From: Nitrospirota bacterium
GTDB taxonomy: Bacteria; Nitrospirota; Thermodesulfovibrionia; Thermodesulfovibrionales; Dissulfurispiraceae
NCBI GenBank assembly: GCA_021791055.1
Contig: JAJYXI010000012.1
Coordinates: forward strand, 14,865-70,842
DNA length: 55,978 bases
Direction of reading: 5' to 3'
Shown: one piece after another, positions 8,134 to 24,728 of the stretch
How positions within the stretch are numbered: position 1 is the stretch's first letter
Layout of the letters: each line of letters opens with the position of its first letter
The notes under the pieces: model-generated
Seen by the model: the letters and a program-made list of their open reading frames with translations, nothing else
Told to the model about the DNA's origin: nothing
The model's database searches: none
Program-made: the position numbers and the translations under genes

Positions 8134-11079
8134 TTATACCATTTCCACAAGTCTCGGCTCATGCGTAAAAAAGATATAGCTCTTTGCCTTCACCGAAAAA
8201 AGCCTTTCCACAGCCTTTTTATAAATATCCATCTGGAAGAAGTATTTCTTCGTAAGTTCTTTTACTTCGCCCTCAGCGATCGGATATGTCTTATAGTCAT
8301 AAATAAAGGCTGTATCACCCCTTATAATCAACCTGTCAATCCTTCCTTTATAAATCTTGCTTCCTATATCCAAAATAAATGGAAGCTCTGAGTAGGAGTT
8401 TTCATGAGGCATAATAATATCCTTCAAATAAACAGTCTCCTCAAGCCGTTTGAGATCAGATAGGATAATATCCTTCATCCTATCCGCACCGCTATCTGAC
8501 AGCATCTCGTTTTTGAGCATATCCACTGCTTTATCTTCAAGATTATCCAATGTGATATATCCTTCCGAAATCCCTTCAAATATCCTGTGAAACGCTCTTC
8601 CGAGAACAACCCAGTCATCGCCGTGCTTTCTTCTTATGTCATCTATCTCTTCGGTAACATCAAGCCATACAACTGCCGGTCTATAATCCAGAGGCCTGAT
8701 GAATATAGGCTCGTCAAATAATTCAGAGTTTAGAGTTATGAGTTTAGAGTTATGTGACTCTTGACTCTTAACTCTTAACTCCAGACTCTTCACTCCTAAC
8801 TCATCTGCTCTTACTTTATTAATCTTAAAGGGAAGCCCTGCTCCAGAATCCACATCTGTCAAATTAAAGCAGTCTGCTATGTATGCAAGCTTTCCTGAAG
8901 GCGATTTCGTTTCAGAACTTGGCCACACCCCTGACATGCAGAGATAATCCATTGCCCTTGTCACTGCCACATAAAACAGCCTCTTTTCTTCGTCCTGAAG
9001 TCTTTCCTTATGTCTCTGGAAGATGGGTGCTTTTTTTCTGATATTCGAATCATCTTCATACGCTATAACAATACCGTTTTCGTCTTCATCCATCACTACA
9101 TTGTTCGAGCCTTTTGCCCTGCTGTCCTCATCGAGGCACGGAAGAAATACCATTGGAAACTGAAGCCCCTTTGAAGCATGTATTGTCATTATCTTCACAG
9201 CATCCATGCCTTCTGTGTTGACATTTGCCTTCGCCTCTTCTGATTTCCCGGATGCCTTTATCAGTTTTTCCCTTATCTCCAAACCTGTAAGCCCTTTCTG
9301 TTCAAGCTCCTCCACGATCTTTATAAACTTCTTCACATTCACATACCTTTGCTTTTCATGTAAATACTGCCATGCCCCTGTCTCGGCAAGAATATCCTCA
9401 AGCAAAATTGCGTATGGAGTCTCTTTCACCCTTTCAAGCCACCTATTGATAGAAGCGATGGCACGAATGACATCCTGCGAGTCTTGAATAACCTGAGTTG
9501 AATTAAGCAGCGAATATAAATAACCTATAGGCATATCATCAACAATCGCATCATCCACAACCTTCAGTATTGTGTCGTATCCTATGGAGAATACAGGTGA
9601 GCGGAGGATATTAAAGAGGCTGTAATCATCCATCGGGTCTATGAGAAAGAAGAGTATATCTCTCAAAATGCCGACTTCGGGGGAGTTGTAAAAACCTATG
9701 CCTTTAACGACAACAAATGGGATATTTTCCTTCCTCAATGCATCTTCAAATATGGAAAGGTGCGTCCTGCTTCTTAAGAGAATTGCCATGTCTCCATAGC
9801 TGCATTTCCTTTTTCCACCTGCGTCGTATATTTCATATTTCCCTGCCAGATCCTTTATTTTCCTTGCAATAACAGATGCCTCTGCCTTTCTGTTTTCCTT
9901 TGTGTTTCCAATGCTGTCAAAGGTGATGAGCTCAACATTGCCTTCTCCTTCCCTTGTTGCCTCAAAGGGTGTGTATTCGATCTTGTAGTCGTCATAAAGG
10001 CCCTTAGGCATCAGCCTCTCAAAGAGGGCATTAACAAAATTGACAATGGCAGGAAGGCTTCGATAATTCTCCTTTATCTCTATAAAATGGTATTCATCGC
10101 CAAGCCATTCAGTGAGTTTTTTCCTTGCATTTTTGAATATGCTGACATTGGCACCCCTGAATGAATAAATGGACTGCTTGTCATCTCCCACCAAAAATAT
10201 AGTCGGATTCACTCCCTTTTCCTTCTTTGCACCCAGCCCGGAGCGCCACTCCTCTGTGAGCTTGTCTATAATCTTCCACTGGAGCGTGCTTGTGTCCTGA
10301 AATTCGTCAACAAGTATATGGTCTGTATGCTCATCAAATGAATAAAGGACATTCTGCCATTCAGGATTCATCGAAATGGCCTCGTATGCCATAAGCTCAA
10401 GGTCATTGTAGTCGAGGCAGTGTTTCTCCATCTTTTTCCTTTTGTATCTTTGCAGACATTTCGAATATATGGACAGAATCCTTTCAAAGTGTTCCTGATC
10501 CTGACTGCTGACCCCGTTAGAAAGTCCCTTTCTAACGGGGCTGACTGTTGACTGCTGACTGTTGACTGTCAATTCTATGGTCGGTCTCTTACCGTGGAGC
10601 TCGCCAAGTATGTTATAGAGCTTATTCCAGCCCTTAATGCCGCTGTCCTTGATTACTTCGTAAAACAAGCCTCCTCCTGATTCGCCATCTTCAACAAGAG
10701 ACTCATAAACCGCCTCGTTCCAGAGAATATCCGCATTAAAACTGTCCATCACCTCAAGGGACGGGTCTATATCGAGGTCAAGGGAAAATCTTTTCAAAAG
10801 CTTCAAACAGAAGGAATGTATCGTAGATATGCGCATCCTCGGCATTTTTTCCCTGACCCGCTCGAACATTTCAGGGTCTTCTTTTTTCAGGATATGCAAA
10901 ATCCTCTCTTTCATTTCGGCAGCAGCCTTGTCAGTGAAGGTTATGGCGAGTATCCGCTCCACATCCGAACCGCTCTTGAGCAGTTCTATATACCTCCTCG
11001 CAAGCTTCTCGGTCTTTCCAGAACCTGCCGGAGAAGAAATCATCACGCTTTTGCTTATATCGAGGTAATTTTCAGTCAT
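8134..11079 (-). CDS. addA: AddA-like UvrD/RecB superfamily helicase-nuclease
   Basis: 981 residues. Helicase motifs in order: Walker A SSPAGSGKTEKL (about 15-26), ILAITFTDKAAAEMKER, STIHSFCLKLLKRF, ILVDEFQDTS, VGDDKQSIYSFRGA, MTIHASKGLQFPMVFLP and LFYVAVTRAMDYL. The C-terminal nuclease shows GRAFHRIFEG, GRIDRLIIRGD and FIYDYKTY. With AddB it would resect double-strand breaks for RecA. It overlaps the end of hsdR by 8 bp, whereas its partner AddB lies 11 kb upstream beyond the restriction island. Two in-frame repeat insertions are visible (8723-8795 and 10501-10570). It is somewhat short for AddA but domain-complete. Confidence 0.85.
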   Translation of the reverse strand: MTENYLDISKSVMISSPAGSGKTEKLARRYIELLKSGSDVERILAITFTDKAAAEMKERILHILKKEDPEMFERVREKMPRMRISTIHSFCLKLLKRFSLDLDIDPSLEVMDSFNADILWNEAVYESLVEDGESGGGLFYEVIKDSGIKGWNKLYNILGELHGKRPTIELTVNSQQSTVSPVRKGLSNGVSSQDQEHFERILSIYSKCLQRYKRKKMEKHCLDYNDLELMAYEAISMNPEWQNVLYSFDEHTDHILVDEFQDTSTLQWKIIDKLTEEWRSGLGAKKEKGVNPTIFLVGDDKQSIYSFRGANVSIFKNARKKLTEWLGDEYHFIEIKENYRSLPAIVNFVNALFERLMPKGLYDDYKIEYTPFEATREGEGNVELITFDSIGNTKENRKAEASVIARKIKDLAGKYEIYDAGGKRKCSYGDMAILLRSRTHLSIFEDALRKENIPFVVVKGIGFYNSPEVGILRDILFFLIDPMDDYSLFNILRSPVFSIGYDTILKVVDDAIVDDMPIGYLYSLLNSTQVIQDSQDVIRAIASINRWLERVKETPYAILLEDILAETGAWQYLHEKQRYVNVKKFIKIVEELEQKGLTGLEIREKLIKASGKSEEAKANVNTEGMDAVKIMTIHASKGLQFPMVFLPCLDEDSRAKGSNNVVMDEDENGIVIAYEDDSNIRKKAPIFQRHKERLQDEEKRLFYVAVTRAMDYLCMSGVWPSSETKSPSGKLAYIADCFNLTDVDSGAGLPFKINKVRADELGVKSLELRVKSQESHNSKLITLNSELFDEPIFIRPLDYRPAVVWLDVTEEIDDIRRKHGDDWVVLGRAFHRIFEGISEGYITLDNLEDKAVDMLKNEMLSDSGADRMKDIILSDLKRLEETVYLKDIIMPHENSYSELPFILDIGSKIYKGRIDRLIIRGDTAFIYDYKTYPIAEGEVKELTKKYFFQMDIYKKAVERLFSVKAKSYIFFTHEPRLVEMV
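8723..8795. repeat. AGAGTTTAGAGTT / ACTCTTAACTC repeat inside addA
   Basis: Imperfect inverted array: AGAGTTTAGAGTTATGAG units on one side and ACTCTTGACTCTTAACTC units on the other. In the addA frame it encodes a run of KSLELRVKSQES and SKLITLNSEL-like residues between the helicase and nuclease domains. Confidence 0.65.
10501..10570. repeat. CTGACTGTTGACTG repeat with a nested 13-bp palindrome inside addA
   Basis: CTGACTGCTGAC and CTGACTGTTGACTG units flank a perfect stem CCCCGTTAGAAAG-TCC-CTTTCTAACGGGG at 10512-10540. The combined insert is open in the addA frame (encodes TVNSQQSTVSPVRKG and onward), indicating one repeat inserted within another. Confidence 0.7.
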
Positions 11080-14397: not shown

Positions 14398-14595
14398 ATG
14401 AAAAAGAAGCCATTAAAAGAGACCAATCCATATTTAAGGGACCCGGGACTCCGCGAGGCATTAATCAATCTCTCCGTTTCATCTTCCACAGCGGTTGAAG
14501 GTGTCCGCACGAAATACCCCAAGCTTTCAAAGTCAGTTGAGAAAAAATTGAAGGCTGTCATAGCCGTTCACGAGTCCTTAGCGTCTTACGAATAA
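14398..14595 (+). CDS. Small protein with Fic-inhibitor motif, putative Fic antitoxin
   Basis: 65 residues, MKKKPLKETNPYLRDPGLRE and onward, with NLSVSSSTAVEGVRTKYP. The segment STAVEG fits the [S/T]xxxE[G/N] motif by which Fic antitoxins block the AMP-transfer site (established for class I antitoxins such as VbhA). It sits convergent with fic and overlaps its 3' end by 38 bp in antisense, and it diverges from hsdR by 44 bp. The promoter spacing suggests leaderless translation. The fic gene itself has no recognisable inhibitory helix. The role is inferred from motif and position. The opposite-strand reading 14310-14561 was judged a shadow. Confidence 0.6.
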   Translation: MKKKPLKETNPYLRDPGLREALINLSVSSSTAVEGVRTKYPKLSKSVEKKLKAVIAVHESLASYE

Positions 14596-15220
14596 CGCTT
14601 TTGAAGATTTGTTCCATCGGCATGTAATCGCGTGTTAAACCTGCCTGTACCGCTGATATGTAGTCCTTCTTCTTTTTGTCAACAATCCCGCTGAAATCAA
14701 GCGGAGGCAACCCTGCCTGCAATGCCATAAAGATCGCCAGCATTCTCGCAACTCTCCCGTTGCCTTCGCGGAATGGATGAATAAGGACAAGTTCTGCATG
14801 GACTTCGGCCAATGCCTGTATAACCCGCTCCATAGATTTGAAATTGCATGGCGTATGTTTCCTGAGAAATTCCTTCTCAAACCCGTTCATCAATAATGGA
14901 ACCTGCTTTGCTGTGGCAAAATGGAAATCGCCCTTGCTTACATTTACCTGTCTGTATTCGCCTGCCCATTCGTAAATATCGCCGAGCCAGATTTTGTGCA
15001 TTGTCCGGATGTCTGCCGCAGTAAAACAATGGTCTTTATCGTATATGCCGATGAGGTTATCAGTGGCGGCCTTGAGAGCTACGGATTCGTCCTCATCAAT
15101 TGTTTTTTTGCTTTTAATAGCGAGCTTGTTTTTGAGGACGCGGCATCGGGAGCCCGGTTCAAATTGGGCTTCGGGTAGGGAGGAGGTGTCGTAGCGGCTA
15201 TGTTTATTTTCAGCTACCAT
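14558..15220 (-). CDS. Fic/Doc-family protein (AMP transferase-type)
   Basis: 220 residues. The catalytic motif is canonical, HPFREGNGRVARM at about residue 140 (HxFx[D/E]GNGRxxR), and the flap region contains YRQVNVSKGDFHFA. The N-terminus has QFEPGSRCRVLKNKLAIKS, as in a common bacterial Fic group. Such enzymes transfer AMP (or other phosphate groups) to target proteins and can arrest growth. It overlaps the end of the reverse transcriptase gene by 7 bp, so it is very likely co-translated with it in the restriction operon. Its proposed antitoxin is the opposing small gene at 14398. Confidence 0.92.
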   Translation of the reverse strand: MVAENKHSRYDTSSLPEAQFEPGSRCRVLKNKLAIKSKKTIDEDESVALKAATDNLIGIYDKDHCFTAADIRTMHKIWLGDIYEWAGEYRQVNVSKGDFHFATAKQVPLLMNGFEKEFLRKHTPCNFKSMERVIQALAEVHAELVLIHPFREGNGRVARMLAIFMALQAGLPPLDFSGIVDKKKKDYISAVQAGLTRDYMPMEQIFKSVIRKTLRTRERL

Positions 15221-17283
15221 TTATCCTTCAACTCTATAAATGCATCATACAAAAGCTCACAGGCTTTTGGTATATAGTTAAATTTAATAGGCTTTGTCGG
15301 TCTGCCTGTTTTTCTCACCATAGTATGAGACAAATCCGATTCTAATCTTTTGCTATGTATATCAGTTGTAGCTTTAAATATCTTGGGATACTTGGATGCA
15401 AAACCTGACGTTGCCGAATTGAGAACTCCTCCGATATTTCCAAGCTGATAAGAACCTATGGTTCCATCATGTTCAAATAAGGCATTAAGCAATAAATCAT
15501 TAAACGTATCAATAATATTAACCCAAGCTGAGGGATCAGTCTTAAAATAACTTTTTGCTCTTGTTATTCTTTTTTCTGCTTGAGAATAATTTTTATTAAA
15601 AATTGCATGCCAATTCATGTCAAGTATGGGCACTTTCAGCATTGTATTTACAGATGCTTCAATACCGCATGCAGAAGAACGCGCTCTTGCAATAAGTCCA
15701 AACTCTTTTAGCACTAAAGATGCAGCCTCATTAACTTTCGTTTTTGGCGTAGTCATATCTATATCGTCTATAGCAATTAAATATGCTGCAAGAAGGCTGT
15801 CGTCGATACTTTTGCTTTTTATCAATTGATTCAATAAATGCCCATAAGAAGGCTTACCAATAAAATCTTTGTCTATATAAGGGAGTATTGCGGCTATAAT
15901 CCACCAGTTTCTCGAATTGAAAATAATTTTTTTCGTTTCCTCATAATTCAAAACTCTATTCTGTAGAAGCCACGCTCCGCATGCTACCTTTAAGTCACTC
16001 CTACCAATTCGCTCCTCTTCAAAGAATAGCTTTTGGACATGTCGATTAAAAATTGTAAGAAGTCTATCAGGCACTTTACCTAAAATTGCATGTATTAATT
16101 GTGCAGAATAAGAAGGATAAAGCGATTCATCTCTAAGAATCATATAGAGCTGTCGGGCAATTTCTACGGGAAGCTTGTCATATCGACTAAAATATCGAAA
16201 AATTGAGATATATAGGTGAGGATGCGTTCTTACAATTCTCAACATCCTTCGACTGGTTTCTATCGAGGGATTTGCATGAGCGAGCACATATTTGAAGCGC
16301 GTTTCATCTTCGACTTTGAAATAATGCGTCAGAGCTTTTAGTCTGTTGTGTACTAATTTCTGAAAGCCATGCCTTCTGTAGCTTGGCTCTGGGGGATTGC
16401 TAATTGACTTTATCTCATCGTTTATGTCTGTAATAGGTCGTATATCGATCTTACTGCTTTGAGGGAAAAGCCCTATAGATTTGCTTAACAAATCCAGTTC
16501 GACGATCATCTGCCTCAAGTGCCGCTCGTCTTTGGCATATAATCTAATATCATCGACATACCGAAAATACTTAACTTTCCTCTTATCTCCTCTTTTCCTG
16601 TCAAAATGAGACAAAACAACTTCAGACAAAAGACCTGATGCTAAGGGACCTTGAGGTATACCATGACCTTGGTAGATGGGTTTTCCTGAGTCAGCTTTTG
16701 TCCAGTGCCGTAAGCACTTGAGGAGAGTGTTGTTGAAATCGTTGTCCAGTCCTAATTCTTCTAAGAAGTGCTTTAATACATGGTGGTCGATGCTATCGTA
16801 ACAAGCAGTCAAATCAAAGAAAGTACGATAAACAAAACCCCTCGAAAAAGCATCTTTTATAGCATCGCCAAATTTTTTGTATCCCAATTGCCATTTTCTA
16901 TAAAAGTACTTGCTTCTTTTCCCGGCATATAGATGTCCAAAGGTTTCTTTATAATATCTCTGACTAACAGATGGATATAGTTTCTCTGCTATAATGTTTG
17001 CAAAAGCCTGATATACGATTTGATCTTCAATGCATAAAAGCGTAAAAGGCCGAAGGATGCCGGACTTCTTAGGGATATAAATTTTACATGCATCGGTTGG
17101 TTCATAAATATTCCGTCTTAATTTGTCTCTTAAATGATTCAGCAACTTATCATCAGCAACTGCATACGCCTCATAGATCCTTCGAAAGTAATTTTTATAC
17201 ATGGATTCCGTATTAGTTAGAGTCCACCGCCATGCTCTGTGTAAGTTGTCGAGTGCAAAAGCCTCATTTAGGTTGTTAGGCAT
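15214..17283 (-). CDS. Reverse transcriptase with long C-terminal helical region, inside the type I restriction operon
   Basis: 689 residues. The polymerase half has IYIPKKSGILRPFTLLC and IEDQIVYQAFANII, motif A FFDLTACYDSIDHH (Asp), motif B HGIPQGPLASGLLSEVV, motif C KYFRYVDDIRLYA (YVDD, catalytic Asp pair) and GLFPQSSKID. Residues 300-689 are mostly helical with no domain I recognise and no maturase or endonuclease motif, unlike group II intron proteins. Long helical tails of this kind occur in abortive-infection/UG-type defence RTs (general knowledge). It overlaps hsdS by 8 bp and fic by 7 bp, leaving no room for an adjacent retron-type RNA. The subgroup is not determined. Confidence 0.88.
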   Translation of the reverse strand: MPNNLNEAFALDNLHRAWRWTLTNTESMYKNYFRRIYEAYAVADDKLLNHLRDKLRRNIYEPTDACKIYIPKKSGILRPFTLLCIEDQIVYQAFANIIAEKLYPSVSQRYYKETFGHLYAGKRSKYFYRKWQLGYKKFGDAIKDAFSRGFVYRTFFDLTACYDSIDHHVLKHFLEELGLDNDFNNTLLKCLRHWTKADSGKPIYQGHGIPQGPLASGLLSEVVLSHFDRKRGDKRKVKYFRYVDDIRLYAKDERHLRQMIVELDLLSKSIGLFPQSSKIDIRPITDINDEIKSISNPPEPSYRRHGFQKLVHNRLKALTHYFKVEDETRFKYVLAHANPSIETSRRMLRIVRTHPHLYISIFRYFSRYDKLPVEIARQLYMILRDESLYPSYSAQLIHAILGKVPDRLLTIFNRHVQKLFFEEERIGRSDLKVACGAWLLQNRVLNYEETKKIIFNSRNWWIIAAILPYIDKDFIGKPSYGHLLNQLIKSKSIDDSLLAAYLIAIDDIDMTTPKTKVNEAASLVLKEFGLIARARSSACGIEASVNTMLKVPILDMNWHAIFNKNYSQAEKRITRAKSYFKTDPSAWVNIIDTFNDLLLNALFEHDGTIGSYQLGNIGGVLNSATSGFASKYPKIFKATTDIHSKRLESDLSHTMVRKTGRPTKPIKFNYIPKACELLYDAFIELKDKW

Positions 17284-18472
17284 CTAATAAAACCTCAAAC
17301 TCGTTTATGGCAGGGCGTACTTTCCCGCTCATCAGCTTAGGCAGAAGCGTATCCCGCAGGTGGGTGAGAGTGCGGATTTGGATTTGGTTAACAAATATCT
17401 TGTCAAAATATAGCTGTACTTGATTGTGAAAAAGTTTAAGCAATTTATCATCAGGTTTTATGATGTCTATGTTTGAAAAATCGCCTGTATTTAAATTGTC
17501 CGTGGCAGTTCCTCCGCTTGCCATCGCCAGCAATTCTTCCTTCATAGTTGCCAATTTCAAATAAAGAAAATATCTATAAATCTCTTTGTCTGGGACAATA
17601 GAATTGATCTGTTGATTGGTCTGGCAATTAAAAGCATTCATTGCTACCAAGCCCACTGTGGCTATACAACTAACACAAATTGATTTCGGTGGGAGGAATT
17701 TATTTTGTTGTGAGTTAGCGCCTTCCTCTGTAAGTGTGTCCTCTGTATCAAAAATAAATGTTTTGCCATGCATGTCTGGTATCCTTATGAAGGGTATACC
17801 GCCCCCAAAATAAGAATGGATTTTCTTTGAAGGCGTTTTGCCACAAATAATTTTACCGCAATCCCCCAACTTCCCAATCTCCCACCCCTCCGCCTCCTCC
17901 ACAAACCACTGCCTGAAAAGCGTCTCTGCCAATGCCTCAAGGGTCTTGTTCTGCCGGTGCAGGAGGTCTATCTTGTCGTCAAGGCTGCTGAGGATTGAGG
18001 CGATGGATTTTTGTTCAGGGAGAGGGGGAAGAAGAATATCCATATCGGCTATTACATCAGGAGTTAAAGACGGATATGCAGAAGTTGACCCCTCCGCAAC
18101 CATATCCAGGTAATTTACGACTTCATCTGAGGTTAAAAAATAATAAATAAATTTTGGGTTTGCTCTTTTTTCATCACAGCTTAGGACTGCAAACCCTGTT
18201 GATACCACAAGGTTTAATTTTGGATTTTTGACTAACCCATAATGCCGTTGAATAGGGCGCACTGTCGAATAAATAATGTCATTGTCTTTAACTATTCGTT
18301 TGGCCCTGCTTGGTGCCTTCTCTATTGCAAAATATTGAAACCCCTCGATCTTCCCTTTCGTAATAGACCCTGTATCAAGATACTCAATTTGCTTATGGGG
18401 ATAATTCCTATCAATGCTCTTGGCGTTAATAGAAATCAAGTCCCCCAGTTTATATTCCTTCCACTCACCCAT
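17276..18472 (-). CDS. hsdS: Type I restriction enzyme specificity subunit
   Basis: 398 residues with two half-sites. The first target-recognition domain is followed by the conserved spacer LLPPLPEQKSIASILSSLDDK and helix TLEALAETLFRQWF; the second domain (GKIICGKTPSKK, FIRIPDMHGK) ends with RTLTHLRDTLLPKLMSGKV. HsdS sets the bipartite recognition sequence for methylation and cutting. The start is in a TAATG junction with the short remnant ORF upstream, and the end overlaps the RT start by 8 bp. The recognition sequence cannot be read. Confidence 0.94.
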   Translation of the reverse strand: MGEWKEYKLGDLISINAKSIDRNYPHKQIEYLDTGSITKGKIEGFQYFAIEKAPSRAKRIVKDNDIIYSTVRPIQRHYGLVKNPKLNLVVSTGFAVLSCDEKRANPKFIYYFLTSDEVVNYLDMVAEGSTSAYPSLTPDVIADMDILLPPLPEQKSIASILSSLDDKIDLLHRQNKTLEALAETLFRQWFVEEAEGWEIGKLGDCGKIICGKTPSKKIHSYFGGGIPFIRIPDMHGKTFIFDTEDTLTEEGANSQQNKFLPPKSICVSCIATVGLVAMNAFNCQTNQQINSIVPDKEIYRYFLYLKLATMKEELLAMASGGTATDNLNTGDFSNIDIIKPDDKLLKLFHNQVQLYFDKIFVNQIQIRTLTHLRDTLLPKLMSGKVRPAINEFEVLLDA

Positions 18473-18561
18473 TATTTGCTGTCCTTTTTTCGCCTTTTCC
18501 TCTCTCTCGTCTTCATCTCCAGTTCAAGTAAAGCTTTCTCCCGCTCTACTTCCCGCGCCAT
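18472..18561 (-). pseudogene. 29-residue charged remnant ORF between a repeat and hsdS
   Basis: ATG at 18561 opens a 29-codon frame (AREVEREKALLELEMK then a run of Arg/Lys) ending in TAATG with the hsdS start. The ATG lies at the very edge of a TTCGACAAGCTCAG repeat (18558-18600). It looks like the surviving C-terminal tail of a gene that was cut by repeat insertion, possibly the DUF1016 gene upstream or another hsd-linked gene. The identity is unresolved. Confidence 0.35.
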
Positions 18562-18600
18562 GGTTCGACAAGCTCAGCCTGACACCGCTAACCATGACAG
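18558..18600. repeat. TTCGACAAGCTCAG-type repeat, copy 1
   Basis: ATGGTTCGACAAGCTCAGCCTGAC...AACCATGAC: core TTCGACAAGCTCAGCCTGAC shared with 18988-19040, with terminal CATGGTT/AACCATG able to pair. Confidence 0.75.
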
Positions 18601-18666
18601 GCTGACCACAACAAACTCACCATAACAATCTCACACGACATCACCAGTGTGCACCTGAGCATCCTT

Positions 18667-18693
18667 GTCATTCTGAGCTTGTCGAAGAATGAC
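18667..18693. repeat. TTCGACAAGCTCAG-type repeat, copy 2 (hairpin)
   Basis: GTCATTC-TGAGCTTGTCGAA-GAATGAC: 7-bp arms around the repeat core in inverted orientation. It forms the last codons of the GIY-YIG gene (encodes GHSSTSSE). Confidence 0.8.
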
Positions 18694-18970
18694 CCTTAGC
18701 CAATTCAACCAGCTTTTCAAAATCACCTGCTATTAATGCTTCCTTTTTCTTCCGGCTCCAACCTTTTATTTGTTTTTCTCGTGATATAGCATCAAGAACA
18801 TCTGAAAATTCCTCCATATACACTAATTTAACAGGTCTTTTATTATGGGTGTAGCATCCGTCAATAAGACCTTCCTGATGCTCATAGAGCCGCCTTTCTA
18901 CATTGTTGGTTACACCTGTGTAATAGCTGCCATCTGAGCATTGTAATATGTAAACGTAATAACTTTTCAT
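18668..18970 (-). CDS. Small GIY-YIG nuclease domain protein
   Basis: 100 residues: YYVYILQCSDGSYYTGVTNN is the GIY-YIG core (here YVY...YTG), then VERRLYEHQEG and AISREKQIKGWSRKKKEALI, as in the UPF0213-like single-domain group. The C-terminal GHSSTSSE is encoded by a TTCGACAAGCTCAG-type repeat, and further repeats lie just upstream of its start. The gene sits inside the hsd operon between the truncated DUF1016 gene and hsdS. It could be a nuclease that travels with the repeats (inference) or a passive passenger. Confidence 0.85.
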   Translation of the reverse strand: MKSYYVYILQCSDGSYYTGVTNNVERRLYEHQEGLIDGCYTHNKRPVKLVYMEEFSDVLDAISREKQIKGWSRKKKEALIAGDFEKLVELAKGHSSTSSE

Positions 18971-18987
18971 TTCACATTAAGGGGACA

Positions 18988-19040
18988 GTCATGGTTCGAC
19001 AGGGCTTCGACAAGCTCAGCCTGACACTGTTCACCATGAC
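18988..19040. repeat. TTCGACAAGCTCAG-type repeat, copy 3 (hairpin)
   Basis: GTCATGGT...ACCATGAC arms enclose TTCGACAGGGCTTCGACAAGCTCAGCCTGAC; the core appears partly duplicated (TTCGACAGGGC then TTCGACAAGC). Confidence 0.78.
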
Positions 19041-19048
19041 AACAACAT

Positions 19049-19075
19049 GTCACCCTGAGCCTGTCGAAGGGTGAC
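19049..19075. repeat. TTCGACAGGCTCAG-type repeat, copy 4 (hairpin)
   Basis: GTCACCC-TGAGCCTGTCGAA-GGGTGAC, 7-bp arms. It supplies the last residues (HPSTGSG) and the stop codon of the truncated DUF1016 gene. Confidence 0.8.
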
Positions 19076-19535
19076 GCTCAAGGGCACGGGTGTTCCAATT
19101 TTGTTCTGCTGCCTCTTTAAGATAGTAATCGCGGGCTTTATCATTTTCGACTCGGAGCAATAACCGATAATGAGTCCAAGTCAATTCGGGGCGCAGTGCG
19201 TCCCGAATTAGGAATGTCTGATAAAATTGACGCATCCTCCTGACTTCCCTCTCGTCAAATCCTTTGCCAAACTCCTCTGTCAATCGGACTGAAAGATTTT
19301 TGATAAGGTATGTTCCATAATCAGCCCGTTGCTTGCCTTTTTGCTCCTCCTCTGCGATAAGCCTCCCGATGTTCCAATACGCCTCTACCATGACAAAATT
19401 GACAGCACGATAAGCATTCTGCCTTGCTGTCTGAAGTATTTCGGCAATGTTCCGATAAAACTCGCTTCGTATTTCAAATTGAGTGCCTGCAAGCGCCCTA
19501 TCTACTGATTTTTTTGGATGTTTGCTATTTGCCAT
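19050..19535 (-). pseudogene. DUF1016 (YhcG-like) N-terminal domain, truncated by repeat insertion
   Basis: 161 residues. AYRAVNFVMVEAYWNIGRLI, YLIKNLSVRLTEEFGKGFD and LTWTHYRLLLRVEN are typical of the DUF1016 N-terminal domain; the sequence runs normally to NWNTRALER and then ends in repeat-encoded HPSTGSG. The C-terminal PD-(D/E)xK-like nuclease domain, normally another 150-200 residues, is gone. The start overlaps the hsdM stop by 11 bp, so the intact ancestor was part of the restriction operon. It may still be translated as a truncated protein. Confidence 0.82.
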
Positions 19536-21123
19536 ATTCTTTTACCTCAATCTTTGCAAGGTTCTCCATAATAGCTTTATTCAATTCCGCCTCTTCCTCT
19601 ATCTGTTTTTCCAGTTCCGCTTTCAACACATTAAACCTTTCAGGAAAATTGCAATCATCCTCATCATCAGGCAGGCCTATGTATCTGCCGGGGGTAAGCA
19701 CATAATTCAATGCCTTTACTTCATCCAAAGTCGCTGACTTGCAGAAGCCCTGAATATCTCTGTAGTCGCCTTCGCCTGTGCGCCAGTTATGGTAAGTGCC
19801 TGCAATCAGGGCAATGTCTTCATCGGACAGATTCCTGTTTCTGCGGTTAATCAAATACCCCATATTGCGGGCGTCTATAAATAAAATTTCACCTTTTCTT
19901 TTCTGCTTATTGCGGCGTAAAAACCAGAGGCAAGCCGGTATCTGTGTATTGAGAAACAGCTTTGTAGGCAGGTTTACGATACAGTCTATCAGATCGTTTT
20001 CAATCAGTGTCTTCCGTATCTCGCCTTCATTACTGGTTTTAGTAGTCAGCGAACCTTTTGCCAATACGAAACCTGCCATGCCTGTCGGCGCAAGGTGATA
20101 GAGGAAATGCTGTATCCATGCGTAATTTGCATTATTCGGCGGAGGAGGCAGTTTCTGTCCCAAGACACTCCAGCGCGCGTCATTTTGGAGCAAGTCGCCG
20201 CTCCAGTCGCTGTCGTTAAACGGCGGGTTGGCAATGATATAATCTGCCTTCAGGTCTTTGTGTGCATCATTGAGAAAAGAGCCTTCGTTGTTCCATTTCA
20301 CATTACTGCTGTCTATATGACGGATGGCAAGATTCATCTTAGCAAGACGCCATGTGGTCTGGTTGCTCTCCTGTCCATAAATTGAAATGCGGTCTGCCGG
20401 ATTCAGGGATAAGCCGTTGCCTTTTTTCTTGTAGTAATCCCGATGCGCCTCAACAAACTTTTCACTCTGCACAAACATTCCGCCCGAGCCGCAGCAGGGG
20501 TCAAATACCCTGCCCTCGTAAGGCTCAAGCATTTCAACAAGCAGTTTTACAACACTTGCAGGGGTATAGAACTGCCCGCCTTTTTTGCCTTCGGCTAAAG
20601 CAAATTCTCCGAGGAAGTATTCATAGACCTTGCCGAGAATATCCTTGCTCTGCGCCTCTTTTGTGCCGAGCACTGCGCTACTGATAAGGTCAATCAAACC
20701 GCCGAGGCTTTGCTTGTCCAGCTTTTCCTGCGCATAAACCTTTGGCAAGACCCCTCTGAGAGAAGGATTGTCCTTTTCAATGGCATCCATTGCATCGTCA
20801 ACATCCTTGCCTATAGTGGGGAGTTTTGCTCTGCCTTGCAGCCACTTCCACCGAGCAGACAGCGGCACATAAAAGACCTTCTCTGCGGTATATTCGTTCT
20901 TGTCTTCAGGGTCTGCGCCTTCGTAAGCGCCTTTGCCCTCTTTCAGCTTTTGATAGAGTTCTTCAAAGGCGTCGGAGATATATTTCAGAAAGATTAAACC
21001 CAGAACAACATGCTTGTATTCTGCGGCGTCCATATTCTTCCGAAGTTTGTCCGCTGCCTTCCAGAGCTTTTTTTCTAAAGGCTCATCGTTCTGTTTCTGT
21101 TTTTCCTTAGCGATCCTCGCCAT
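19525..21123 (-). CDS. hsdM: Type I restriction enzyme methylase subunit
   Basis: 532 residues. The N-terminal helical domain (LWKAADKLRKNMDAAEYKHV) is followed by SAM-binding VFDPCCGSGGMFVQSEKF and the catalytic adenine-methyltransferase motif IIANPPFNDSDW. It methylates adenines at the HsdS-defined site. First gene of the restriction operon; a palindrome TTAGAGAA-N3-TTCTCTAA lies just upstream of its ribosome-binding site (AGGAGAAT). It overlaps the truncated DUF1016 gene by 11 bp. Confidence 0.96.
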   Translation of the reverse strand: MARIAKEKQKQNDEPLEKKLWKAADKLRKNMDAAEYKHVVLGLIFLKYISDAFEELYQKLKEGKGAYEGADPEDKNEYTAEKVFYVPLSARWKWLQGRAKLPTIGKDVDDAMDAIEKDNPSLRGVLPKVYAQEKLDKQSLGGLIDLISSAVLGTKEAQSKDILGKVYEYFLGEFALAEGKKGGQFYTPASVVKLLVEMLEPYEGRVFDPCCGSGGMFVQSEKFVEAHRDYYKKKGNGLSLNPADRISIYGQESNQTTWRLAKMNLAIRHIDSSNVKWNNEGSFLNDAHKDLKADYIIANPPFNDSDWSGDLLQNDARWSVLGQKLPPPPNNANYAWIQHFLYHLAPTGMAGFVLAKGSLTTKTSNEGEIRKTLIENDLIDCIVNLPTKLFLNTQIPACLWFLRRNKQKRKGEILFIDARNMGYLINRRNRNLSDEDIALIAGTYHNWRTGEGDYRDIQGFCKSATLDEVKALNYVLTPGRYIGLPDDEDDCNFPERFNVLKAELEKQIEEEAELNKAIMENLAKIEVKEYGK

Positions 21124-21166: not shown

Positions 21167-21592
21167 CTAAAACAACTTCCTGAATCCCATCCCGACTTCT
21201 TCAAAATGCTTATCGTTAGTTAAAGCTTCTGAAATGCGAATCTCTTTCATTACAACAAAGGAAGTGAAGTCAAAAAATGAGATGCTTGTTTTATCGTTAT
21301 ACTTTTTGCTCAACTCCCATGCCTTTGCCCATCTCTTTTCATCTATTCTTTCAAGGATTATTCTCTCGTTCTTGACTGCATTGAGGATTGTTTCAATAAA
21401 AGTATCTACAAGCTTGAAATCTATTTTAGCCCTTAAAAAAGTAATCGTCTCTGCAAGAATGTAGTCTGTAGTAATGGGTAGTCCTCTGCTCAAAAGCAAA
21501 TCTTTATAAAAGGAATAAACCCTTTCATGATAGTTATCGTTCTTATTGGCAATAGCTACCCATCCCCAACTATCAAAAAAGACATTCTTCAT
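21167..21592 (-). CDS. PIN-domain toxin (VapC-type ribonuclease)
   Basis: 141 residues. Acidic PIN residues are visible: FFDSWGWVAI (Asp near the start), DYILAETITFL (Glu), ISFFDFTSFVVM (Asp) and ALTNDKHFE (Asp). These coordinate Mg for cleavage of RNA, usually tRNA or rRNA. It follows the ribbon-helix-helix gene with a 4-bp overlap, the usual antitoxin-toxin order. It stands between addB and hsdM on the same strand. Confidence 0.88.
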   Translation of the reverse strand: MKNVFFDSWGWVAIANKNDNYHERVYSFYKDLLLSRGLPITTDYILAETITFLRAKIDFKLVDTFIETILNAVKNERIILERIDEKRWAKAWELSKKYNDKTSISFFDFTSFVVMKEIRISEALTNDKHFEEVGMGFRKLF

Positions 21593-21855
21593 CTTTTACG
21601 AGGAAACCCATACAGATATTCATCAATGCTGTCTGCAAGATCAGGAGGCCCGCCTTTGCAAATGCCAGCTATAGAGAGGAGTTTCTCTGTTATTTCGTCC
21701 ACGGGCTTCTCTTTCTTTTTTCTGCGCTCCTTTAAAAAATTATTGATGGCTATCCTCACCAACTCAGCAACAGACATTCCCGAATCCTGCTGAAGCCTTT
21801 CCAATGCCTCTTTCTGTGTATCTTCCATAAACATTTGAAACCTTACTTTAGCCAT
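21589..21855 (-). CDS. Ribbon-helix-helix antitoxin
   Basis: 88 residues. KVRFQMFMEDTQKEALERLQ then SGMSVAELVRIAINNFLKER is a CopG/MetJ-like ribbon-helix-helix; the basic middle KERRKKKEK leads to a C-terminal toxin-binding tail. It should neutralise the PIN toxin encoded immediately after it and repress their shared promoter. A strong ribosome-binding site AGGAGGAAT and a consensus promoter are directly upstream. Confidence 0.86.
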   Translation of the reverse strand: MAKVRFQMFMEDTQKEALERLQQDSGMSVAELVRIAINNFLKERRKKKEKPVDEITEKLLSIAGICKGGPPDLADSIDEYLYGFPRKR

Positions 21856-21977: not shown

Positions 21978-24728
21978 TCACTGCTGTATATACGGGCAAA
22001 ACGCGTATTCATGACAATTCCAGCAGATATAATCGTTCAACGGCTTCGCCTTAAAATCCCCTTTTCTTATGCCCGCTGCCGCGTCTTCAAGAAACTTCAG
22101 CGCCGCGATTATATAATCGTCTATGACTTCCTGCCCTTTGCCTCTTTTGGACGGCGGGCACCACTTGATATTTATATCCTTGAGCGAATATATCCCTACC
22201 CTGTTCACCTTATAGCCCTGATTCTTCATCATCGCTGCATAGAGGAACAACTGGAGGTTTTCATTTCCTTCCAATGCCTGTTTACAGTTAAGGCTTGCCC
22301 CTCCTGTCTTGTAATCTATTATCTGCACAGAATCTTCTATCCTATCGAATCTGTCCACCTTGCCCTTCAGTTTTATGCCCTTTATAGGCTCGCCTGTAAT
22401 GGTCTTTTCGGCCTCTGTGGAGATGTATCCATCCTTTCTTATCTCAAGCTCCTTTTCATAGATGTCAGGGAGGATCTCAATAAATGTATCCTTTATCATC
22501 ATCTTCCAGTATGCATCTATCCTCTTGTCCTTCATGGACTCCTCTATTATGGCTTCAGCCCTATCCCTCAGATATTCGATATTTTCGAACGGCTCCTTTA
22601 TGATCCTCTCCATTATTTTATGTATTATAGTTCCGATGGTAACTGCCTCAATCTCGTATTCCTTTATATCCGCCGGCCTGAGATTCAGCATCCTTTCAAT
22701 GAAAAACCTTCTCGGACACATCCTGTACGCATCCACATCCGTAACCCTGAGAAAGGCTGAAGGCTGAAGGCTGAAGGCTGAAGGCTGAATTTCTATTTCG
22801 GATATATGCTTGGAAAATGGTTTGCAGCCCTGCCTGACAAGATACTCTTCGTTAGAGAAGATTCCTGGAATCAGTTCCCTGACTTCCTCGCCAAAATATA
22901 AAAACGATGAAGGAAGAAACATGTTATCGCCGTCCATCAGTGGGTAAGACAGATGCATATTTTTGCATGAGTTTATCAGATTGTAAAAGCAGAATCTCTG
23001 AATATCTATGTACTTGTCAAGGTTTAAAAAATTTAGTCTCTTCTTAACATTGTCCGGCAGGAGGTAGTCCATGCCCATTCTCTTAGGCATGTCTCCATCT
23101 GTCAGTCCTCCGAAGAAAATGTATTCGGGCGACAATCCTGACATCTCGGAGAAATCCATTACTCTTACGCCTGTCCCTTCTGTTTCGATGTAACATGCAT
23201 TAAGGATATGCGTAAACACATCTATGAATTCCGACAATGTAACAGGGGCTGAATGCAGCGTCCCTAAAAAAGATATATGTTCGAGCAGATCGTTTGCCGT
23301 CCTGCGAATATCCCTCATCGAAGAATCCATCGGAAATGCAAGAAAACCCAAATCGTTTAAAATGTCATGGATTAGATTCACATATGTGGCGAAACTCGCG
23401 CCATTCTTAACATTATCAAGCGGCTGCAGTTTCTCAAAGACCCAAGCCATATCCTTTTCTATCTCATCTCTTTCCTCCATAAGGCTCATATCTATCGTCT
23501 CGGAACCCTCTGCTATAAAGTTAAGCCATTCTTTCTTCCCGGAGACAATACCTGACTGCAGGGAAAGTGTTGCTACCCATTTCTTCGGTCTCTCCGGCAC
23601 TTTTGTGAAATATTTCGATGAAAGGAATTGCGAAAATTCCAATCTCGGATAGTTCTCAGCAACAGAACAAAGAAGAGATGAGAGATCAAGAAACGGCCTC
23701 GTCTTTCCAAGAGGTTTTTTCTTAGAGATACTGCATGGAATGCCGTAGCGGCTAAAAACCCTGTCAACCATTGCAGAGTATTTATTTAAATCCGGAAATG
23801 TAACTATTACCTCTCCCAAGTCTCCAAATTTCCCTGATACATACAATGACTTTATGTTCCTTGCTATCCCCTCCACCTCTTCTTCGATACCCGGATATGA
23901 GCAATAAACAAAAGAGGCAATAGGCGATGGGCAATAGGCTATAGGGATTTCCTCCTCTCGCCTATTGCCTATTGCCTCTTGCCCGTTTTTAAGATACATC
24001 TCTTCAATGTCAAAATTATCCTTCAGAAAATTTATATATCCTTCAGACAATTCTCTAAACCGTGAATCGTATGGAATAGCAATTAAGGTATGTTTTGAGT
24101 TTTGAACCAAACCTTTTAAAATATTCCTCTCAGACGGCGTTGGGTCATAAAAACCATCAAGGATAAGCAGCTCTGAGCTCTGAACCCTGAACTCTGAGCT
24201 TATGCTTACCACATCTTCTTCATCAATAAGTCCGCTTTTCTGAATGAAAGATTGATATTCATTAAATGCATCAAGACCGTCCATAATAACCTTCGACACC
24301 GACTCAGGGATATTGAGCTCGTCGAACACTTCCAAAAAATTATGTTTTATGTCATCTATTTCATGGTCCGGATAAAGCTGTTTAAGCTCACTTATGAAAT
24401 CTGAAATCATTGATGAAAAGCCAAGCCCTCTGCCGCAAAGCCTTGAAACAATGACCGGAATCAGAGACCCATGAAGCATCCTCTTGTCTCCATAAACAGA
24501 ATAAAGCTTTTTGCAATACTGTCTGATAGCAGCCATCTCAGGGGGGATATAGCATTTGTTGTCCTGAAGCCGATGGAATATCTTTTGTGCCTCTTTGGTC
24601 TTTGTTGAAGTAGGCGATAGATATAGGATTCTTGAGTAATCAGGATTTTGTATATCTTTTACCGCCTCTTCAAAAAGGAATTCCGTGATGTTTCTATAAC
24701 TCAGCGGTGTGTAGAAGATTTTTACCAT
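21978..24728 (-). CDS. addB: AddB-like RecB-family nuclease / inactive helicase
   Basis: 916 residues. The central region has IFFGGLTDGDMPKRMGMDYLL as in AddB. The C-terminal nuclease starts RVTDVDAYRMCPRRFFIERM, has GTIIHKIMERI, KGKVDRFDR and QIIDYKTGG, and ends with YICWNCHEYAFCPYIQQ; the four cysteines of the iron-sulfur cluster (one in MCPRRF, three at the end) are present. It pairs with AddA for break resection. There is a divergent gene (hpt) upstream, so addB probably has its own promoter. Three in-frame repeat insertions are visible (22751-22788, 23911-23985, 24166-24202), all in likely surface loops. Confidence 0.85.
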   Translation of the reverse strand: MVKIFYTPLSYRNITEFLFEEAVKDIQNPDYSRILYLSPTSTKTKEAQKIFHRLQDNKCYIPPEMAAIRQYCKKLYSVYGDKRMLHGSLIPVIVSRLCGRGLGFSSMISDFISELKQLYPDHEIDDIKHNFLEVFDELNIPESVSKVIMDGLDAFNEYQSFIQKSGLIDEEDVVSISSEFRVQSSELLILDGFYDPTPSERNILKGLVQNSKHTLIAIPYDSRFRELSEGYINFLKDNFDIEEMYLKNGQEAIGNRREEEIPIAYCPSPIASFVYCSYPGIEEEVEGIARNIKSLYVSGKFGDLGEVIVTFPDLNKYSAMVDRVFSRYGIPCSISKKKPLGKTRPFLDLSSLLCSVAENYPRLEFSQFLSSKYFTKVPERPKKWVATLSLQSGIVSGKKEWLNFIAEGSETIDMSLMEERDEIEKDMAWVFEKLQPLDNVKNGASFATYVNLIHDILNDLGFLAFPMDSSMRDIRRTANDLLEHISFLGTLHSAPVTLSEFIDVFTHILNACYIETEGTGVRVMDFSEMSGLSPEYIFFGGLTDGDMPKRMGMDYLLPDNVKKRLNFLNLDKYIDIQRFCFYNLINSCKNMHLSYPLMDGDNMFLPSSFLYFGEEVRELIPGIFSNEEYLVRQGCKPFSKHISEIEIQPSAFSLQPSAFLRVTDVDAYRMCPRRFFIERMLNLRPADIKEYEIEAVTIGTIIHKIMERIIKEPFENIEYLRDRAEAIIEESMKDKRIDAYWKMMIKDTFIEILPDIYEKELEIRKDGYISTEAEKTITGEPIKGIKLKGKVDRFDRIEDSVQIIDYKTGGASLNCKQALEGNENLQLFLYAAMMKNQGYKVNRVGIYSLKDINIKWCPPSKRGKGQEVIDDYIIAALKFLEDAAAGIRKGDFKAKPLNDYICWNCHEYAFCPYIQQ
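22751..22788. repeat. CTGAAGGCTGAAGG tandem repeat inside addB
   Basis: About five consecutive GGCTGAA units in frame; encodes QPSAFSLQPSAF immediately before the nuclease domain. A degenerate relative is at about 77-115. Confidence 0.75.
23911..23985. repeat. GGCAATAGGCGATGG inverted repeat inside addB
   Basis: GGCAATAGGCGATGGGCAATAGG on one side and CCTATTGCCTATTGCC on the other make a long hairpin; the insert is open in frame (encodes GQEAIGNRREEEIPIAYCPS). Confidence 0.7.
24166..24202. repeat. CTCTGAACTCTGAG repeat inside addB
   Basis: GAGCTCTGAACCCTGAACTCTGAGC; encodes SSEFRVQSSELL in frame. Confidence 0.6.

What the first reader, a model, noticed from the sequence alone, without database searches (positions are those of the whole stretch)
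14558..18472. Reverse transcriptase embedded in a type I restriction operon between hsdS and fic
hsdS, RT and fic overlap by 8 and 7 bp, so the RT is not a loose neighbour. It has intact motifs (YVDD) and a 350-residue helical tail of unknown type; no maturase domain, no room for a retron RNA. By analogy with PrrC and RloC, toxins embedded in hsd loci that act when restriction is inhibited, RT and Fic might be a second line of defence released on restriction failure.
Basis: partly seen in the sequence, partly recalled or inferred. Interest (0 to 1): 0.85.

Follow-up and report, generated by a model that had tools for sequence, protein, structure and literature searches.

The report
Defence reverse transcriptase inside restriction operon
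A bacterial operon for cutting foreign DNA also carries a DNA-making enzyme fused to what looks like an RNA-cutting toxin domain, plus a separate Fic toxin with its own likely antidote; related enzymes recur beside other restriction systems, which suggests layered defence against viruses.

Summary
In detail: hsdS, RT and fic lie on the minus strand, overlap by 8 and 7 bp, and hsdR follows. The RT is not an intron or retron RT. It matches PADLOC RT_UG19 over its full length (1.3e-173), and UG19 forms one clade apart from group II introns. The tail of "unknown type" resolves into an Abi/DRT-like helical domain and a C-terminal HEPN-like bundle with an R-x6-H motif (R in 69 of 71 sequences, H in 71 of 71), the same architecture as AbiA. 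In 14 of 78 UG19 loci an hsd-type gene lies within 130 bp of the RT, always on the same strand; most other loci show none. hsdS-RT-fic recurs once, in a Nitrospinota contig, with a decayed hsdS. Relatives carry hsd loci without the RT, so the RT is cargo, not a subunit. The Fic is a separate toxin with a conserved convergent small ORF carrying the Fic-inhibition motif (19 of 19 related Fic loci). Best reading: a three-tier R-M/HEPN/Fic locus as proposed in 2013 for RloC/PrrC, with an RT-HEPN in place of the ABC-HEPN. Release on restriction failure is plausible but untested.

The parts
19525..21123 (-). hsdM, type I methyltransferase subunit, 532 aa
   Evidence: Pfam N6_Mtase 4e-108 and HsdM_N
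17276..18472 (-). hsdS, specificity subunit, 398 aa; its 3' end overlaps the RT start by 8 bp
   Evidence: Pfam Methylase_S 1e-42, two stretches; coordinates
15214..17283 (-). UG19 reverse transcriptase, 689 aa
   Evidence: PADLOC RT_UG19 1.3e-173 over residues 4-689; RVT_1 1e-14; tree
16384..17283 (-). RT domain, residues 1-300
   Evidence: AlphaFold2 model pLDDT 92; VIA-align Z 22.5 to group II RT over 268 residues
16549..16560 (-). YVDD catalytic motif, residues 242-245
   Evidence: sequence; D244 and D245 in 71 of 71, V243 in 70 of 71
15673..16371 (-). helical solenoid (alphaRep-like) domain, residues about 305-537
   Evidence: model; alignments that reach residues 502-504 with DRT6 Z 19.4, AbiA 18.7 and AbiK 16.0, and residue 586 with DRT4 18.3
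15214..15672 (-). C-terminal HEPN-like four-helix domain, residues 538-689, and stop
   Evidence: model pLDDT 96; VIA-align top rows AbiA 8oz7 Z 8.0, HepT toxins 7.8 and 7.7, sacsin HEPN 7.5
15325..15348 (-). R-x6-H motif RLESDLSH, residues 646-653
   Evidence: R 69 of 71, H 71 of 71
14558..15220 (-). fic, 220 aa, with HPFREGNGR motif
   Evidence: Pfam Fic 6e-20; PADLOC PDC-S04 6.7e-75; motif read from the translation
14398..14595 (+). small convergent ORF, 65 aa, with SSSTAVEG: candidate Fic antitoxin overlapping the fic 3' end
   Evidence: homologue convergent with fic in 19 of 19 other Fic loci and in L047
11072..14353 (-). hsdR, 1093 aa
   Evidence: Pfam HSDR_N, SWI2_SNF2, T1RH-like_C
21978..24728 (-). 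addB-like gene, upstream flank of the island
   Evidence: best NCBIfam matches are addB models, below cut-off
8134..11079 (-). addA-like gene, downstream flank of the island
   Evidence: best NCBIfam matches are addA models, below cut-off

Best explanation
The RT is a member of the UG19 group of UG/Abi defence reverse transcriptases, built as RT - helical solenoid - HEPN-like domain. It sits as cargo in the hsdS-hsdR interval of an otherwise complete type I restriction-modification operon. I think it works like AbiA and PrrC: it is made together with the restriction enzyme and held quiet in the uninfected cell. When a phage gets past or inhibits restriction, the RT part starts nucleic-acid-template-independent, possibly protein-primed DNA synthesis, and the HEPN dimer damages RNA or blocks the infected cell. 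The downstream Fic is a separate class I type toxin, held by a small protein read from the opposite strand, and forms a third layer that AMPylates host proteins. Shown here: gene order, overlaps, group membership, three-domain architecture (the HEPN assignment by fold comparison plus motif), intact catalytic motifs, recurrence beside R-M genes, cargo behaviour, the conserved convergent ORF. Inferred: defence activity, untemplated synthesis, HEPN activity, antitoxin function. Only guessed: release by restriction failure.
For: PADLOC RT_UG19 full length at 577 bits against 175 for the next model; all 71 aligned members match RT_UG19 at 1e-60 or better. UG19 is one clade (SH-aLRT 99) apart from 10 group II RTs (30 of 71 UG19 rows used). 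Helical domain aligned with DRT6, AbiA, DRT4 and AbiK at Z 16.0-19.4 over 387-447 residues. C-terminal domain: the seven best rows of VIA-align include AbiA, HepT toxins, sacsin HEPN and RnlA; R-x6-H with R in 69 and H in 71 of 71. AbiA has the same three domains and an R-x6-H, RNSNPVSH (PMC11077055, passages). Association: an hsd-type gene within 130 bp in 14 of 78 loci (15 counting the doubtful L111), all same strand, about 75 per 100 kb there against 0-4 per 100 kb in the farther bins. hsdS lies directly before the RT in six of these (L052, L055, L057, L076, L082, L119), plus a decayed hsdS in L047. No conserved flanking non-coding DNA between most close UG19 pairs, as expected for an RT without an adjacent ncRNA. 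Precedent: AbiA-CTD HEPN fused to RT in operon with R-M; PrrC/RloC with R-M and Doc/Fic genes (PMC3710099, passages).
Against: 55 of 78 UG19 loci have no hsd hit in the flanks held (many flanks are short), so R-M linkage is frequent but not obligate. Foldseek alone gives no significant HEPN match (best: sacsin HEPN, E 0.91), a VIA-align Z of 8 is within the noise level stated for helical bundles, and no Pfam HEPN family matched convincingly. AbiA's own HEPN showed no RNase activity in vitro and acts in dimerisation (PMC11077055, passages), so the UG19 domain may be structural. No UG19 member is known to me as tested against phage. The sequence neighbours of UG19 are UG21, UG32, UG22 and UG23 rather than AbiA/AbiK, so the mode of synthesis is inferred from shape only.
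Confidence: 0.5

Rival explanations
1. Independent passenger. The UG19 RT is a self-contained defence gene that lands in hsd operons because these are safe, transcribed sites in defence islands; there is no functional link with restriction or with Fic.
For: Context changes at least 15 times on the UG19 tree of 71 rows with hand-made labels. Neighbours also include pAgo/Piwi, DUF3732, SIR2 and T5orf172 genes. Most close pairs of RTs share no flanking DNA. Decayed hsd loci between addB and addA in G003 and G005 lack the RT, and L145 has hsdM-fic-hsdR without it.
Against: 23 of 23 nearest hsd hits are on the RT strand and 14-15 lie within 130 bp; repeated entry with tight spacing (3-6 bp after hsdS in five loci, 22 bp after hsdR in two) suggests selection for co-expression. 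The sister group UG21 is also beside R-M genes in 4 of 5 genomes.
Confidence: 0.35
2. RT and Fic form one two-gene toxin system released together.
For: The 7-bp overlap of RT and fic recurs in L047; a different, SoFic-like Fic follows the RT directly in L071; a Fic gene lies 64 bp upstream of a UG21 RT in L044.
Against: Fic relatives with their convergent small ORF exist in 19 of 19 loci in which no RT was found within the 1.5 kb held on each side, 7 of them beside hsdM or hsdR hits. Of 78 UG19 loci only L047 and L071 have an adjacent downstream Fic.
Confidence: 0.07
3. Mobile intron or retron remnant inserted in the operon.
For: RVT_1 match, and weak match to the group II intron RT model at 83 bits.
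Against: 83 bits against a cut-off of 300; separate clade; no maturase domain; no Rfam retron or intron match; 8/7-bp gene overlaps leave no room for the RNA.
Confidence: 0.02

Closest known systems
AbiA of Lactococcus lactis (RT - helical domain - HEPN)
   Same: Three domains in the same order, R-x6-H motif in the C-terminal HEPN, reported in operons with R-M (PMC11077055 and PMC3710099, passages)
   Different: Best profile is RT_UG19, not AbiA; UG19 is spread over many phyla; whether the HEPN fusion is shared by descent was not resolved
UG19 / DRT entry of PADLOC-DB (PDLC03756)
   Same: Full-length match of the window protein; all 71 aligned members match
   Different: The library entry gives only the name DRT; domain architecture and R-M linkage are added here
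PrrC/EcoprrI and RloC with R-M and Doc/Fic genes
   Same: HEPN-type effector and Fic/Doc toxin embedded in an hsd locus
   Different: No ABC-ATPase: an RT-solenoid takes the place of the regulator; regulation by Hsd subunits not shown
DRT4 (UG15), DRT6, AbiK, Abi-P2
   Same: RT plus helical solenoid, Z 15.9-19.4
   Different: UG19 adds the C-terminal HEPN-like domain
UG21 reverse transcriptases
   Same: Closest group by profile; also beside R-M genes
   Different: Tails of four UG21 proteins show no R-x6-H at the HEPN position

Membership tests
UG19 group of UG/Abi reverse transcriptases | Full-length match to the group profile, clearly above other RT groups | tested here: met
   577 bits against 175 for UG21
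UG19 group of UG/Abi reverse transcriptases | One clade apart from group II intron RTs | tested here: met
   SH-aLRT 99, 30 UG19 rows of 71, 5 UG21, 10 group II
UG19 group of UG/Abi reverse transcriptases | Antiphage activity | not testable with these tools
   needs phage assays
AbiA | RT - helical domain - HEPN with R-x4-6-H | tested here: met
   the HEPN fold match is suggestive, not significant in Foldseek
AbiA | Best sequence match is the AbiA subfamily | tested here: not met
   Best is RT_UG19; no AbiA model among the best 25 of 72, so any such model ranks below the 43.3 bits of the last row shown
Group II intron RT/maturase | TIGR04416 over 300 bits, maturase domain | tested here: not met
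   83 bits; no maturase family in Pfam scan
Retron | Adjacent structured msr-msd RNA | tested here: not met
   No Rfam match near threshold; overlapping genes on both sides
PrrC/RloC anticodon nucleases | N-terminal ABC-ATPase fused to HEPN | tested here: not met
   Only RVT_1 in Pfam
PrrC/RloC anticodon nucleases | HEPN effector embedded in a type I hsd locus | tested here: met
   HEPN by fold and motif
PrrC/RloC anticodon nucleases | Kept silent by Hsd subunits and released by anti-restriction | not testable with these tools
   needs biochemistry or genetics
Class I Fic toxin-antitoxin | HxFx(D/E)GNGR motif and a separate small protein with (S/T)xxxE(G/N) | tested here: met
   HPFREGNGR; SSSTAVEG in a 65-aa ORF with homologues beside 19 of 19 Fic loci; motif definitions recalled
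Class I Fic toxin-antitoxin | Toxicity of Fic and neutralisation by the small protein | not testable with these tools
   needs expression assays

The most novel reading that the evidence does not exclude
UG19 is a restriction-coupled RT-HEPN alarm: the RT-solenoid replaces the ABC-ATPase of PrrC/RloC as the sensor. Hsd subunits hold it quiet. When restriction is blocked, or when dNTPs or DNA ends build up, the RT primes DNA synthesis on itself, and this product or conformational change switches on the HEPN RNase. The same module has been fitted repeatedly to type I, long-methylase and pAgo-linked systems.
Probability: 0.15. Interest if true: 0.85.

Novelty: new variant of a known kind. Interest (0 to 1): 0.62.

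Why it matters
It gives an uncharacterised DRT group a domain-level hypothesis (RT-solenoid-HEPN, AbiA-like) and a testable partner (the adjacent R-M system). It also adds a reverse transcriptase group to the list of HEPN effectors that ride in hsd operons, which makes the old question of what activates Abi-type RTs testable with anti-restriction proteins. The convergent Fic antitoxin candidate is a separate, easily tested lead.

Tried and rejected
Rejected: intron or retron origin. Rejected as one unit: RT plus Fic. No UG19 relative in viral contigs with the single-sequence patterns, none by tblastn at 1e-20 in plasmids or phages. Rfam at E 1 gave three chance hits, all far below gathering. 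Conserved ncRNA in UG19 flanks: 29 pairs compared, 2 of them without upstream sequence; upstream hits in L078/L081 and L084/L085 and the downstream hit in L074/L076 fall in neighbouring coding genes, L089/L098 are near-copies, L115/L119 and L078/L081 share 83 and 69 bp downstream that I did not pursue. Profile search of the tail against PDB sequences gave two chance hits; Pfam at E 1 on 71 tails gave only scattered chance-level hits. Promoter and terminator scan was at background level. The Pfam scan of the small ORF found nothing above chance; tblastn of it in plasmids found nothing.

Literature: 'UG19' occurs in two held papers together with the other terms, one of them relevant, in one table row. 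The UG/Abi survey I recall as Mestre et al. 2022 is not held, so I cannot say whether R-M linkage or a HEPN domain of UG19 is in print. Papers seen as passages only: PMC8934634, PMC8565338, PMC11077055, PMC13174585, PMC3710099, PMC12249575, PMC12632851. All others only as search listings. A convergent Fic antitoxin was sought (listing only).

Full report
Observation. The minus-strand order is addB - PIN-like pair - hsdM - two small ORFs - hsdS - RT - fic - hsdR - addA. hsdM, hsdS and hsdR match their families over most of their length, so the R-M system looks complete. The host genome is a 2.55-Mb draft in 87 contigs. I infer Nitrospirota, because a same-order and a same-phylum genome (G056, G452) have hit contigs of the same lengths as named Nitrospirota contigs (L093, L048).

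What the RT is. PADLOC names it RT_UG19 with 577 bits over residues 4-689; the next model is UG21 with 175 bits. All 71 members of the alignment I built (the window and 70 of 78 loci) match RT_UG19 at 1e-60 or better. A tree of 30 UG19 rows, 5 UG21 and 10 group II intron RTs separates the three groups, with SH-aLRT 99, 98 and 99. UG19 was found in 11 of 230 genomes of the class and 15 of 395 of the phylum at 1e-40, a threshold that also lets in UG21, and in 78 loci over many phyla in genome contigs.

Architecture. AlphaFold2 with 71 sequences gave pLDDT 92 and pTM 0.92. The first 500 residues align with DRT6 (Z 19.4, 445 residues), AbiA (18.7, 387), DRT4 (18.3, 429) and AbiK (16.0, 447), which means RT plus helical solenoid. 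Residues 538-689, folded alone, gave pLDDT 96 and a helical bundle. VIA-align ranks AbiA first (Z 8.0, 4.0 A, 130 residues), then HepT toxin structures, 2q00, the sacsin HEPN domain, TT1696 and RnlA. Foldseek's best is sacsin HEPN, but at E 0.91, and no sequence profile of HEPN matched convincingly, so fold evidence alone is suggestive. The motif strengthens it: R646-x6-H653 has R in 69 and H in 71 of 71 rows, with H643 in 67, and AbiA's HEPN motif is also R-x6-H. Four UG21 tails lack it.

Recurrence. With profiles grown from the window's Hsd proteins, 23 of 78 loci hold an hsd-type gene in the flanks available. In 15 the nearest is within 130 bp (14 if L111, where frames overlap oddly, is left out), and all 23 are on the RT strand. 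The density of nearest hits is 75 per 100 kb in the first 130 bp and 0-4 per 100 kb in every farther bin. The arrangements differ: hsdS then RT (L052, L055, L057, L076, L082, L119), hsdR then RT (L078, L081, L108, L113), a long methylase then RT (L064), RT then hsdM or hsdR (L060, L074, L115). Other neighbours are a Piwi protein 9 bp upstream (L118), DUF3732 (L080), SIR2 (L053), T5orf172 nucleases (L084, L085) and a PLD-helicase beside a methylase (L122). The context label changes at least 15 times on the tree. In UG21, 4 of 5 Nitrospirota loci are beside hsdS or a long methylase and one beside a Fic gene. Against this, 55 of 78 UG19 loci showed no hsd gene, some because contigs are short.

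The exact order. L047, a Nitrospinota contig whose RT is 71% identical, has a 95-aa internally deleted hsdS overlapping the RT start, then the RT, then fic with the same 7-bp overlap. So hsdS-RT-fic recurs once, in another phylum. L145 (same class) has hsdM - a 196-aa ORF - fic - a 191-aa ORF - hsdR, with HsdM and HsdR 81-85% identical to the window's, and no RT. In G003 and G005, of the same genus and family, decayed hsd genes lie between addB and addA as in the window, with hsdS and a stub of hsdR but neither RT nor fic. The hsdS-hsdR interval therefore behaves as a cargo slot.

Fic. The Fic has the HPFREGNGR motif and no obvious inhibitory motif of its own by eye. A 65-aa ORF on the opposite strand (14398-14595) runs into the fic 3' end and holds SSSTAVEG, the (S/T)xxxE(G/N) pattern of Fic inhibition (pattern recalled; the class scheme is also in the abstract start of PMC3667792, listing). 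In a search of 245 genomes 22 had Fic matches; of the 20 loci returned, one is the window itself and the other 19 all have a homologous ORF in the same convergent position, as does L047. Seven of these 19 lie beside an hsdM or hsdR hit, with no RT hit in the 1.5 kb held on either side. Fic is thus a module of its own.

Mechanism. The nearest published scheme is that of PMC3710099 (2013): R-M attacks DNA, a linked HEPN protein attacks RNA, a linked Doc/Fic toxin attacks proteins, and the HEPN layer is released when the R-M system is neutralised, as for PrrC (passages). The same paper lists the AbiA C-terminal HEPN, fused to an RT, in operon with R-M. The present locus fits this scheme, with an RT-solenoid-HEPN as the middle layer. 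Class 1 UG RTs studied so far make DNA without a nucleic acid template (PMC13174585, passages), and most close UG19 pairs share no flanking non-coding DNA, so I favour untemplated, perhaps protein-primed synthesis. AbiA's HEPN was inactive on RNA in vitro and needed for dimerisation, so the HEPN here may be structural. Nothing here tests activation.

Verdict. Observation confirmed; interpretation partly supported. UG19 was already a library entry, and HEPN and Fic cargo in hsd loci is a published theme. What is added is the AbiA-like architecture of UG19, its same-strand linkage to several kinds of R-M genes, the cargo-slot comparison, and the convergent Fic antitoxin candidate. Whether any of this is already in the UG/Abi survey literature I could not check.

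Noticed in passing
8134-11079 and 21978-24728: The whole hsd island lies between addB-like and addA-like genes. In relatives the addB-addA gap ranges from 9 bp (G012) through about 0.9-1.7 kb (a lipoprotein/patatin-like ORF, PIN pair) to 5.1 kb (G003), so this junction looks like an insertion hotspot in a recombination operon.
   Followed up: partly
14398-14595 (+): Conserved small convergent ORF with a Fic-inhibition-like motif, tail to tail with fic, found in 19 of 19 related Fic loci.
   Followed up: partly
21167-21855 (-): PIN-like toxin and antitoxin-like pair upstream of hsdM (named by eye); homologues of both lie in the same addB-addA gap of G024, and of the PIN gene in G003.
   Followed up: partly
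18668-19535 (-): A DUF1016 N-terminal fragment and an ORF that looks like a small GIY-YIG protein by eye sit between hsdM and hsdS; the first may be a remnant.
   Followed up: no
18540-18700, and in-frame stretches in hsdR and addA: Short repeat-like sequences (GACAAGCTC-type palindromes; an SPQPSPSGRGREGEGG-like insert in HsdR) suggest small repeat elements inserted in and between genes; read by eye only.
   Followed up: no
L118:7874-12055: A Piwi-domain protein ends 9 bp before a UG19 RT, downstream of hsdS and hsdR hits, in Plebeiobacterium sediminum.
   Followed up: partly
L080:7947-12082: A DUF3732 protein lies 29 bp upstream of a UG19 RT.
   Followed up: no
L038, L039, L040, L041 (UG21): UG21 RTs directly abut hsdS or long methylase genes, with gaps of -17 to +8 bp.
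   Followed up: partly
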